A DNA stretch of 28,434 bases from a virus. Shown here piece by piece: positions 8,846 to 16,526 of this stretch. The position numbers and the translations under genes were made by a program. The stretch is from IMG/VR virus record IMGVR_UViG_3300029319_008964, positions 1 through 28,434 of that record. One strand, given 5' to 3'. How positions within the stretch are numbered: the first letter of the stretch is position 1; each line of letters begins with the position of its first letter. The notes beneath the pieces were generated by a model. That model ran no database searches, had not been told where the DNA came from, and saw only the letters and a program-made list of their open reading frames with translations.

Positions 8846-9024
8846 CTTCCCTGTCCCCTATAAGGTTTTTTTCGACGTCTTGCTCGACTTGGTGTACTCC
8901 CAGATCTGCTGCCATCATAAAAAGTTTCACCACCAGAGTGAGGCTTTTTAGAATATGTACCAGAACCAATTGTGGTCTTTTTCTTTGGGTAACTAGTGCT
9001 AACTTTATTTTTAATACTGGCCAT
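8842..9024 (-). CDS. Small basic 60-residue protein
   Basis: The ATG lies inside the end of the deformylase gene (14-base overlap). The product MASIKNKVSTSYPKKKTTIG continues with Gly, Ser and Lys and ends RARRRKKPYRGQGR. It is strongly basic and probably disordered, as expected for a protein that binds RNA or DNA or a ribosome-associated peptide. The C-terminal KPYRGQGR resembles small conserved phage proteins known to me only as hypothetical. Coupling to def is notable, since deformylase acts at the ribosome exit. Confidence 0.7.
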   Translation of the reverse strand: MASIKNKVSTSYPKKKTTIGSGTYSKKPHSGGETFYDGSRSGSTPSRARRRKKPYRGQGR

Positions 9025-9463
9025 TGAATAACTCCTTGTCTACGGCTCTGTCGAACATTGTAATTCCATTAAGGTGATCAATTTCATGCTGCACACAAAC
9101 ACACTCTAAAGCATTATTCTTAAAAGAAAAGAAAAGTTGATTTTTGTGGTTATCGGCAGTTACAACTATGTCTGTCCAACGTTCAGTTAAAACATAATCA
9201 CCTTGAAATGAAAGACAACCCTCTTGAAAAAAACTTTTTCCAAACTTTCCAACAATTTCAGGGTTGATTAAAATCACTGGCTTCTTAACTTTAATAACGC
9301 AGACCGCTGAGTCAATTCCTATTTGATTTGCAGCAAGGCCGACGCCATCATTTGTTTGCGAGAGCACCTCAAGTAAGCGATTTCCAATGGCCATTCCGTC
9401 TGGGACGCTTCGACATGGTTTACAGGCTTTATTTAATTTACTTCTGTCGCTAACAAATTGCAT
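9011..9463 (-). CDS. def: Peptide deformylase
   Basis: The enzyme removes the formyl group from the N-terminal methionine of new proteins. All three motifs are present: GVGLAANQIG (40-49), EGCLSF (81-86) with the metal-binding Cys83, and QHEIDHLNG (125-133) with His126, Glu127 and His130. At 150 residues it is shorter at the C-terminus than host enzymes, as usual for phage deformylases. The ATG at 9463 is preceded by GGAGGG, which lies in the 3' arm of a perfect hairpin (9466-9503). It follows hsp20 and overlaps a small basic protein. Regulation by that hairpin is likely. Confidence 0.95.
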   Translation of the reverse strand: MQFVSDRSKLNKACKPCRSVPDGMAIGNRLLEVLSQTNDGVGLAANQIGIDSAVCVIKVKKPVILINPEIVGKFGKSFFQEGCLSFQGDYVLTERWTDIVVTADNHKNQLFFSFKNNALECVCVQHEIDHLNGITMFDRAVDKELFNGQY

Positions 9464-9465
9464 AA

Positions 9466-9503
9466 GCCCTCCAGTCTATAATATAAATATAAAACTGGAG
9501 GGC
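9466..9503 (-). promoter_or_regulatory. Hairpin hiding the def ribosome binding site
   Basis: Perfect 10-bp arms GCCCTCCAGT and ACTGGAGGGC flank an 18-base AT-only loop apart from one G. The 3' arm contains the GGAGGG Shine-Dalgarno sequence of def, so the paired form would block translation from mRNA read through from hsp20. No T-tract follows, so it is not a terminator. Confidence 0.7.
9479..9490 (-). promoter_or_regulatory. AT-rich element in the def hairpin loop, candidate internal promoter
   Basis: The loop reads TTTATATTTATATTATAG on the minus strand and shares the TATTTA core and A/T tail of the CTATTTAATAT motif. A transcript starting some 5-7 bases downstream would lack the 5' hairpin arm and leave the def ribosome site free. 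The match is partial. Confidence 0.3.
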
Positions 9504-9519
9504 CAAAACGATTTATTTG

Positions 9520-9942
9520 TTAATCAATCTTAACATTAATCGCTTGCGCTTCAGGCCTGGTAGGCAAACTAATGGTCAATAAACCATTTTCATAGTCTGC
9601 CTTTGCAGCTGTTAAGTCCAGATTATTATCATAATTTACATAAGTCTTCTTAAAACTTCTACGAGCGATACGTCGCTGTGTCTGGGTTGCAGTATCAGAC
9701 CGTGCAGAGACAGTAATAGTGCGCTCTTCTGGCTTAACCTCTACACTTAATTCATTTTTATCGAAGCCTGCCAAAGCAAACTCTAAAGTTGTTGAGCCAT
9801 CATCATTTTTATAAATGTCGGCTACAGGATAGCCTTGTGTCGTCCTTTGCATTAGCTGCGGAAAGTCCAACATTGAATCAAAAATATCGTCAAAGACGCC
9901 TCGCCCTAAAAGATTTGGACGGTATGTAGTTAAAGTAGTCAT
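9520..9942 (-). CDS. Small heat shock protein, Hsp20/IbpA family
   Basis: Holdase chaperone that binds unfolding proteins and hands them to ATP-dependent chaperones. The 140-residue length and order fit IbpA: an N-terminal arm (RPNLLGRGVFDDIFDSMLDF), then an alpha-crystallin domain from about residue 40, with YPVADIYKNDDGSTTLEFAL, AGFDKNELSVEV, and ENGLLTISLP (the A-x-x-x-NGLL-type end motif). A short tail follows with an INVKI segment similar to the I-x-I/V anchor. SD AGGAG lies before the ATG. A sigma70-like promoter lies about 60 bases upstream. It is transcribed ahead of def and fits with GroEL and GroES elsewhere in the window. Confidence 0.93.
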   Translation of the reverse strand: MTTLTTYRPNLLGRGVFDDIFDSMLDFPQLMQRTTQGYPVADIYKNDDGSTTLEFALAGFDKNELSVEVKPEERTITVSARSDTATQTQRRIARRSFKKTYVNYDNNLDLTAAKADYENGLLTISLPTRPEAQAINVKID

Positions 9943-11456: not shown

Positions 11457-13358
<1,902 letters not shown>

Positions 13359-14842: not shown

Positions 14843-15487
14843 TTAGACAATAATATCAGCAATTCCCAAACTAACTGCTTCTTCAGCATCTAGGTATACA
14901 TTTGTCTTTCTTTCCATTAATTTTTTAATGTATCTTTCAGTCATATCTGTTTCGGTTGCTAGAGCTTTGACATACATTTTTTGCGTTTGTTTTGTCTCAG
15001 AAAATTCATTTTCAATATCTGCAATGTGTCCATGCTGGCCGGCTACAACACCATGTATCATCACTCTGCAGTGTCTGCCAATTTTTCTTTCACCTTTGGT
15101 TCCAGCAGCTAGAAGTAATACGCCGGCAGACATAACCTTTCCAACGCCATATGTTTCTATCGGCGTTCTTTCTCTGATATCACGCATCACATCATAAACT
15201 GCAAACATTTCAGTTGCTTGACCACCATAAGAAGAAACATAAAAAGTGATTGGGTCACTTAAAGGTGGAGGTTCGCCTTCCTCTTCAGCTACCATAATTT
15301 TAGAAGACGCGTCCAAGGTTAATAAACCATATATGGCTTCAGAACAACGCTCCTCATTAATATCACCATAAATGGCGATCGCTCTCATTTCGGGTCTATC
15401 CATCGCCATGCCCAGCATGGCTGCTAAATCATTATTTTCTTGTCCTTCCTGTTGTTTCTCTTCAACTTCCTCTGAAAACTTTTTCAT
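14843..15487 (-). CDS. clpP: ClpP-family serine protease
   Basis: Self-compartmentalising peptidase subunit. The start at 15487 has AAAGGAG at good spacing, giving 214 residues. GQATEMFAVYDVMRDI, the nucleophile segment GVGKVMSAGVLLLAAG (Ser120) and RVMIHGVVAG (His145) fit ClpP. The third triad residue is unclear: the segment MERKTNVYLDAEEAVSLGIA is two residues shorter than in host ClpP and has Asn or Lys where the catalytic Asp is expected. A 60-residue N-terminal part rich in Glu and Gln precedes the core. No Clp ATPase is seen here. It could be a phage maturation protease or could tap host unfoldases. A terminator stands directly upstream, so expression may depend on read-through. Confidence 0.92.
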   Translation of the reverse strand: MKKFSEEVEEKQQEGQENNDLAAMLGMAMDRPEMRAIAIYGDINEERCSEAIYGLLTLDASSKIMVAEEEGEPPPLSDPITFYVSSYGGQATEMFAVYDVMRDIRERTPIETYGVGKVMSAGVLLLAAGTKGERKIGRHCRVMIHGVVAGQHGHIADIENEFSETKQTQKMYVKALATETDMTERYIKKLMERKTNVYLDAEEAVSLGIADIIV

Positions 15488-15503
15488 TTTTTCTCCTTTT
15501 AAC

Positions 15504-15535
15504 AAAAAAAAAGGCAGGCTTGGTGGCCTGCCTTT
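15504..15535 (-). terminator. Rho-independent terminator before clpP
   Basis: Minus-strand arms AAAGGCAGGC and GCCTGCCTTT (10 bp, loop of six) are followed by a run of nine T. It sits 20 bases after the acidic protein gene and 16 bases before the clpP start, with no room for a promoter in between. Confidence 0.9.
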
Positions 15536-16286: not shown

Positions 16287-16526
16287 CTAAATAGATTCTT
16301 TTTCAAAGAAATGACTTATTTTTTTCAAAGCCTTATCTTCAATTTGTTTAACTCTAACAAAACTTATTTTAAGTCTGTCAGCAGTCTGTCTTAATGTGAG
16401 TGGTCCATTGATGTTAACGGACTCCAAAAGGCAATTTTTTTCTTTTGGAAAGTTTATCCAATTTCTACACTCTACAACTGGACAATTAACATCCAAGCGC
16501 TTGCATGCTGATAAGCACTCTTTCAT
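16287..16526 (-). CDS. Small sigma-70 region 4-like protein with Cys-rich N-terminus
   Basis: The 79-residue product has a helix-turn-helix GPLTLRQTADRLKISFVRVK (41-60), then QIEDKALKKI, matching the GxTLxExAxxLxxSxxRVRQIExKALxKL pattern of sigma factor region 4, which binds the -35 element. Five cysteines (4, 8, 15, 20, 32) fill the N-terminal part, including CPVVEC, suggesting zinc binding. Regions 2 and 3, needed to melt promoters, are absent. Thus it cannot be a full sigma factor; it could be a DNA-binding adaptor, an anti-sigma or a co-activator. Its ATG overlaps the stop of the ribbon-helix-helix gene (ATGA), so the two regulators are made together. Confidence 0.8.
   Translation of the reverse strand: MKECLSACKRLDVNCPVVECRNWINFPKEKNCLLESVNINGPLTLRQTADRLKISFVRVKQIEDKALKKISHFFEKESI

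What the first reader, a model, noticed from the sequence alone, without database searches (positions are those of the whole stretch)
9464..9506. Deformylase mRNA hairpin with a possible promoter in its loop: a T4-like early/late translation switch
Seen: perfect 10-bp arms (9466-9475 and 9494-9503) on either side of an AT loop, the 3' arm holding the GGAGGG of def, which starts three bases beyond. mRNA read through from hsp20 would pair and hide this site. The loop holds a TATTTA-type element similar to the CTATTTAATAT motif found directly before two other genes. Known: in T4, genes such as e (lysozyme) have early read-through RNAs with a hidden ribosome site while late promoters inside the hairpin give a free site. 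Inferred: def is silent on hsp20 read-through RNA and made only from a short late RNA.
Basis: partly seen in the sequence, partly recalled or inferred. Interest (0 to 1): 0.72.

Follow-up and report, generated by a model that had tools for sequence, protein, structure and literature searches.

The report
Phage late-promoter hairpin gating deformylase
In a family of uncultured, mostly marine T4-type phages, the start site of the peptide deformylase gene is locked inside an RNA hairpin whose loop carries the phage's late promoter, so the enzyme should be made only from late transcripts; this is the trick known from T4 lysozyme, found here on a different gene with a different promoter sequence and strong evolutionary support.

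Summary
The hairpin is real: perfect 10-bp arms (9503-9494 / 9475-9466, minus strand) lie between hsp20 and def, with the def ribosome site GGAGGG in the 3' arm. It is under selection as RNA. In ten distinct relatives, 8 of 11 pairs show compensatory double changes (95.5% paired; at most 58% when slid; 0/500 shuffles), cognate arms beat swapped arms in all 20,000 permutations, and pairing fits the coding strand best. The only invariant loop letters are ATA-TTA, part of a CTA(T/A)TTAT box. That box lies on the coding strand before virion genes (sheath, tube, genes after gp23) and is absent before nine metabolic, replication, chaperone and sigma genes and hsp20: a late promoter. Opening the ribosome site costs 16 kcal/mol on read-through RNA and 4 on RNA started at the box. 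Where a terminator or strong stem separates hsp20 from def (seven relatives), the box stays but the sequestering stem is weak or lost. The T4 gene-e-type reading is well supported, by comparison only; no RNA was measured. The mechanism is a new member of a known kind. The phages appear to use their own sigma-70-type factors. In passing: the same box sits 4-8 nt before conserved ATGs without a ribosome site, suggesting leaderless late mRNAs.

The parts
9520..9942 (-). hsp20 (140 aa), gene directly upstream; no late box before it and no terminator after it
   Evidence: Pfam HSP20 1.5e-10; upstream box scores at most 4.9 bits in 9 genomes; no terminator between hsp20 and def
9494..9503 (-). 5' arm of the hairpin (GCCCTCCAGT), present only on read-through RNA
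   Evidence: compensatory changes in relatives
9483..9490 (-). late-promoter box ATATTTAT in the loop (ATA-TTA invariant in relatives)
   Evidence: box class defined
9476..9478 (-). predicted transcription start of the short late RNA, about 5-7 nt after the box (inferred)
   Evidence: calibrated by the conserved 4-nt box-to-ATG spacing of leaderless-type genes and by T4 precedent (PMC2988020)
9466..9475 (-). 3' arm of the hairpin (ACTGGAGGGC)
9467..9472 (-). Shine-Dalgarno GGAGGG of def, inside the 3' arm
   Evidence: opening cost 16.2 kcal/mol on read-through RNA vs 4.4 on short RNA
9011..9463 (-). def, peptide deformylase, 150 aa
   Evidence: Pfam Pep_deformylase 6.6e-27; phrog_2890

Best explanation
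The element is a translational switch of the T4 lysozyme (gene e) type. Transcripts that enter from hsp20 carry both hairpin arms, fold, and hide the def ribosome-binding site, so def is not translated from them. Later, the phage's late RNA polymerase starts inside the loop at the ATATTTAT box. That short RNA lacks the 5' arm, its GGAGGG is free, and deformylase is made with the virion proteins. Shown by computation: the stem, its selection as coding-strand RNA, the invariant box in the loop, the box's link to virion genes, and the calculated accessibility difference. Inferred: promoter activity and timing, existence of hsp20 read-through RNA, and repression in vivo.
For: Covariation: 8/11 pairs with double changes, 27 double-change cells vs 8.5 in shuffles, 95.5% paired vs at most 58% for slid partners. 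Arm swap: cognate mean -23.6 vs -16.3 kcal/mol, 0/20,000 permutations. G-U cells make coding-strand pairing 105/110 vs 95/110 on the complement. In the loop only ATA-TTA is invariant. The box is strand-biased before genes (ACTATTTA 40:1; PWM sites 110:7), sits before sheath, tube and post-gp23 genes, and is absent before RNR, Pol III alpha, dUTPase, IMPDH, ThyX, UvdE, GroEL, Grx, the region-4 sigma gene and hsp20. SD opening 11.9-19.2 kcal/mol in ten hairpin loci vs 1.2-7.1 in seven loci with a terminator or strong stem. Among 148 box-bearing genes def has the strongest enclosing stems.
Against: No RNA data of any kind. The loop box has A instead of the usual C at its first position and scores 5-9 bits against 10-13 for structural genes, so the promoter may be weak. 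In L005, L007 and L067 (and L001, 9.1) the predicted short RNA still costs about 8-12 kcal/mol to open. L011 has a weakened stem and more distant relatives lack the hairpin. The tests share ancestry, so the counts are not independent events.
Confidence: 0.82

Rival explanations
1. The hairpin is an RNA operator: a phage or host protein (a RegA- or gp43-like repressor, or deformylase itself) binds stem and loop and represses def; ATA-TTA is the recognition loop.
For: Stem plus invariant loop letters is also the pattern of a protein-binding hairpin such as the T4 gene 43 operator (PMC3014915).
Against: The same letters recur before virion genes without a hairpin and directly before ATG codons. 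Loop length and distance from box to 3' arm vary widely. Seven relatives keep the box but lack the tight stem.
Confidence: 0.08
2. The hairpin mainly protects or processes the 3' end of hsp20 mRNA, and SD overlap is incidental.
For: It lies between hsp20 and def, with no other stem there.
Against: The purine-rich SD is inside the 3' arm in all ten hairpin relatives and the box is in the loop. There is no U tract after the stem. L011 keeps a partial stem and the loop box without hsp20 upstream.
Confidence: 0.05
3. A DNA-level palindrome (repressor operator or cruciform) rather than an RNA structure.
For: Perfect arms in this window.
Against: Ten G-U cells and no A-C cells: pairing is 95.5% as coding-strand RNA, 86% on the other strand. 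Arm sequence changes freely while pairing is kept.
Confidence: 0.03
4. RNA thermometer coupled to heat shock (hsp20 neighbour).
For: hsp20 is adjacent and the SD is sequestered.
Against: Predicted SD opening stays below 0.1% up to 65 C; the hairpin controls def, not hsp20; no Rfam match.
Confidence: 0.01

Closest known systems
T4 gene e (lysozyme) leader hairpin with internal late promoters (McPheeters 1986, as reviewed in PMC3014915)
   Same: SD held in a stem on read-through RNA; late promoter located so that late RNA lacks the 5' arm; late RNA has a free SD.
   Different: Gene is def, not a lysis gene; box is (C/A)TA(T/A/G)TTA(T/C) instead of TATAAATA; here conservation is shown by covariation in divergent phages; no experiment yet.
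T4 I-TevI, segB, soc, gene 49 and Aeh1 mobE hairpins (PMC2988022, PMC3014915)
   Same: Same logic on late genes embedded in longer polycistronic transcripts.
   Different: Several of those are homing endonucleases; here a metabolic gene in uncultured phages that carry Pol III alpha and sigma-70-type factors.
T4-type late promoters (gp55/gp33/gp45; PMC2988020)
   Same: Single 8-bp AT box about one turn before the start, before virion genes, in phages with a T4-type Gp23 capsid protein.
   Different: CTATTTAT-type consensus; phage-encoded sigma-70-type factor (regions 2-3) and a small region-4 protein found; gp45 not detected.
Peptide deformylases of pelagimyophages and cyanophages (PMC7029224)
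   Same: Phage-encoded def as a metabolic gene in marine T4-like phages.
   Different: There reported inside a DNA metabolism operon (pelagimyophages) or with photosystem genes (cyanophages); late-promoter prediction failed in pelagimyophages and no hairpin is mentioned in the main text.

Membership tests
T4 gene e-type RBS-sequestering hairpin with internal late promoter | SD or start codon paired in a stable stem on read-through RNA | tested here: met
   Opening cost 16.2 kcal/mol; covariation
T4 gene e-type RBS-sequestering hairpin with internal late promoter | Late promoter placed so that its RNA lacks the 5' arm | tested here: met
   Box in the loop in all ten hairpin relatives; predicted start 9478-9476; promoter activity itself not measured
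T4 gene e-type RBS-sequestering hairpin with internal late promoter | SD is freed on the short late RNA | tested here: inconclusive
   Window 16.2 to 4.4 and most relatives fall to under 5 kcal/mol, but L001, L005, L007, L067 stay at 8-12
T4 gene e-type RBS-sequestering hairpin with internal late promoter | Long RNA exists and is not translated; late 5' end mapped | not testable with these tools
   needs infection RNA-seq or reporter assays; no host or isolate known
T4-type late promoter | Box before virion genes, on the coding strand | tested here: met
   (box and gene-class contrast); absence of a -35 element was not modelled
T4-type late promoter | Exact TATAAATA consensus | tested here: not met
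   TATAAATA: 4 of 55 sites within 60 nt upstream of starts; CTATTTA(T/A): 51 of 101
T4-type late promoter | gp55 sigma, gp33 and gp45 clamp encoded | tested here: inconclusive
   gp45 C-domain Pfam not found in 9 records but no positive control rang; sigma-70-type regions 2-3 protein and region-4 protein found; gp55 and gp33 not searched for specifically
Intrinsic terminator | U tract after the stem | tested here: not met
   3' arm is followed by TTATGCAATTT; not listed
RNA thermometer | SD opens at heat-shock temperatures | tested here: not met
   closed to 65 C in prediction

The most novel reading that the evidence does not exclude
The gene-e-type switch arose here outside the T4 gp55/gp45 machinery. 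A clade of T4-capsid phages uses its own sigma-70-type factors, perhaps split into a regions 2-3 protein and a free region-4 protein, to read a CTA(T/A)TTAT late box. The same box is deployed in three ways: before ordinary leaders, inside SD hairpins that stand in for terminators as insulation from read-through, and fused to the start codon to give leaderless late mRNAs.
Probability: 0.35. Interest if true: 0.68.

Novelty: new member of a known kind. Interest (0 to 1): 0.55.

Why it matters
It shows by covariation that read-through-silencing hairpins with an internal late promoter are a selected solution well beyond the T-even phages and on a metabolic gene. Relatives that solve the same problem with a terminator or strong stem suggest the two devices are interchangeable insulators. 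It also gives a concrete late-promoter consensus for uncultured T4-type phages, which makes temporal classes in metagenomic contigs predictable; a published attempt to predict late promoters in pelagimyophages failed (PMC7029224). It implies that phage deformylase is wanted late and kept off early.

Tried and rejected
RNA thermometer, intrinsic terminator, known Rfam element (only four tRNAs) and sigma-70 promoter in the loop (a 9-of-12 match among 44 such sites in 10 kb; 31 expected) were considered and not favoured. MAFFT on full hairpins misregistered L002-L004, so stems were counted on arm-box-arm strings with the rest of the loop removed (A4); one bulged T in L008 was dropped. A first version carried a mistyped base in the window row and was discarded. 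The genome-wide test for enclosing stems shows that most late promoters are not in hairpins; beyond def, the next are the genes starting at G002:85334, G004:2839 and G006:2431 (428, 162 and 170 aa; CTAATTA box in loop, SD in 3' arm), with weaker support. Searches for cultured close relatives by def, sheath and Pol III alpha found only distant hits. Paper searches for the CTATTTAT box as a phage promoter and for a deformylase hairpin found nothing relevant, which does not cover most subscription journals.

Full report
OBSERVATION. The minus strand reads GGCCCTCCAGT-TTTATATTTATATTATAG-ACTGGAGGGC-TT-ATG between the hsp20 stop (9520) and the def start (9463). The arms are perfect over 10 bp, the SD GGAGGG is 9472-9467, and ATG follows after CTT. 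Only two such GC-containing perfect 10-bp hairpins exist in the window (the other is a terminator at 15510), against a mean of 0.22 in dinucleotide shuffles. The neighbourhood folds better than shuffles (z = -3.8). hsp20 and def are confirmed by Pfam and PHROGs. The window is part of a 30-kb virus record. Several relatives encode T4-type Gp23, so these are T4-type phages; the nearest cultured relatives are distant.

CONSERVATION OF THE STEM. Fourteen viral contigs encode def 65-93% identical to the query, and a profile search gave 69 loci. Ten distinct loci (window, L002, L003, L005, L006, L007, L008, L010, L011, L067) align as arm-box-arm. Eight of 11 pairs have changes on both sides, with 27 such cells (shuffles 8.5), 95.5% of cells paired (73.8% shuffled; 44-58% when partners are slid by 1-3) and covariation score 0.747 (0.281 shuffled, 0/500). 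Independently, each 5' arm was hybridised in silico to every 3' arm (L004 included): cognate mean -23.6, non-cognate -16.3 kcal/mol, and no permutation of 20,000 was as good. The ten G-U cells are allowed only on the coding strand: 105/110 paired there, 95/110 on the complement. The stem is therefore selected as RNA of the def sense. These sequences share ancestry, so the figures measure consistency, not independent events. The hairpin is a trait of one def clade; L004, placed beside that clade, has a terminator and an SD that is not tightly held.

THE LOOP. In the hairpin alignments the only invariant loop columns are ATA-TTA. Unbiased 8-mer counts upstream of genes in the relatives give ACTATTTA as the top word (40 upstream on the coding strand, 1 on the reverse); CTATTTAT and CTAATTAT are also enriched. 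A position matrix learned from all upstream gaps (not sorted by gene class) finds sites of 10 bits or more before 110 genes on the coding strand and 7 on the reverse. Sorted afterwards by gene, sites of 10-13 bits lie before most orthologues of tail sheath, tail tube, the two genes after gp23 and a 704-aa gene. RNR, Pol III alpha, dUTPase, IMPDH, ThyX, UvdE, GroEL, glutaredoxin, the region-4 sigma gene and hsp20 have none. T4's exact TATAAATA is not enriched (4 of 55 sites near starts). I read the box as this clade's late promoter. The def loops hold a weaker form, with A rather than C first (5-9 bits).

WHERE THE LATE RNA WOULD START. The box-to-ATG distance is bimodal: a sharp peak at 4 nt, almost never with an SD, and a broad class at 13-25 nt with an SD. 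The close spacing is conserved in four genomes for the 1029-aa gene (4 nt) and in ten genomes for the 117-aa gene (about 1-6 nt), whose protein is conserved from its first codons. If these are leaderless mRNAs, transcription starts about 5 nt after the box. Applied to def, the late RNA starts near 9478-9476, just before the 3' arm; in L002 it would start at the SD itself. The 5' arm is absent in every case.

CONSEQUENCE FOR TRANSLATION. Freeing the SD costs 16.2 kcal/mol on read-through RNA and 4.4 on the short RNA in the window; 11.9-19.2 on read-through RNA in the ten strong-hairpin loci (window, L001-L003, L005-L008, L010, L067). Among seven relatives with an intrinsic terminator (L004, L013, L078, L079, L109) or another strong stem (L014, L086) between hsp20 and def, the cost is only 1.2-7.1. 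All seven still carry the box. Terminator and sequestering hairpin therefore look like alternative ways to keep def off transcripts coming from hsp20. Four relatives (L001, L005, L007, L067) keep 8-12 kcal/mol on the modelled short RNA, which is unexplained and may reflect a wrong start position or pairing further into the gene.

HOW SPECIAL IS DEF. Of 148 genes with a box at the right distance, def orthologues have the strongest stems enclosing it. The next are genes following the gp23 region (428 aa in G002, 162 aa in G004, 170 aa in G006), with the box in the loop and the SD in the 3' arm. Most late promoters are not in hairpins.

COMPARISON. T4 genes e, soc, 49 and I-TevI, and Aeh1 mobE, work this way: SD sequestered on early read-through RNA and a late promoter that yields RNA without the 5' strand, about 100-fold lower lysozyme synthesis for e (PMC3014915, PMC2988022). 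The element works like these and meets the sequence-testable features, except that freeing of the SD on the short RNA is only clear in some relatives. Membership in the gp55/gp45-driven T4 late system is not shown: the box differs, gp45 was not detected (without a positive control), and the relatives encode a sigma-70-type regions 2-3 protein and a small region-4 protein of their own.

STATUS OF EACH STEP. Shown by computation: hairpin, RNA-level selection, box in the loop, association of the box with virion genes, difference in SD accessibility, alternation with terminators or strong stems. Inferred: late activity of the loop promoter, hsp20 read-through RNA, silence of def on that RNA, and the benefit of late deformylase.

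Noticed in passing
window 4062-4050, 4617-4603, 24332-24320 (minus strand); G003, G004, G012, G016, G017: CTATTTA(T/A) box a few nt before ATG with no SD, conserved in orthologues of a 1029-aa gene (4 genomes, 4 nt) and a 117-aa gene (10 genomes, 28-54% identity): likely leaderless late mRNAs. Box-to-ATG distances 2-8 nt: 39 sites vs 6-8 for control patterns.
   Followed up: partly
window 16287-16526 (minus strand): 79-aa protein with only sigma-70 region 4; other records of the clade also carry a separate sigma-70-type protein (Pfam regions 2-3, 333 aa in L129). Possibly a split late sigma factor.
   Followed up: partly
G002:85334, G004:2839, G006:2431: Genes following gp23 with a CTAATTA box in the loop of a hairpin whose 3' arm holds the SD; a second candidate for the same switch.
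   Followed up: partly
window 11729-13312, 14843-15505: GroEL-like and ClpP-like genes in the same cluster as hsp20 and def; a terminator precedes the ClpP-like gene (window 15510-15535).
   Followed up: no
G006:36995, G011:4248, G013:6201: The gene after the region-4 sigma gene has a conserved CTATTTAA box followed by a long leader with a small hairpin before its SD.
   Followed up: no
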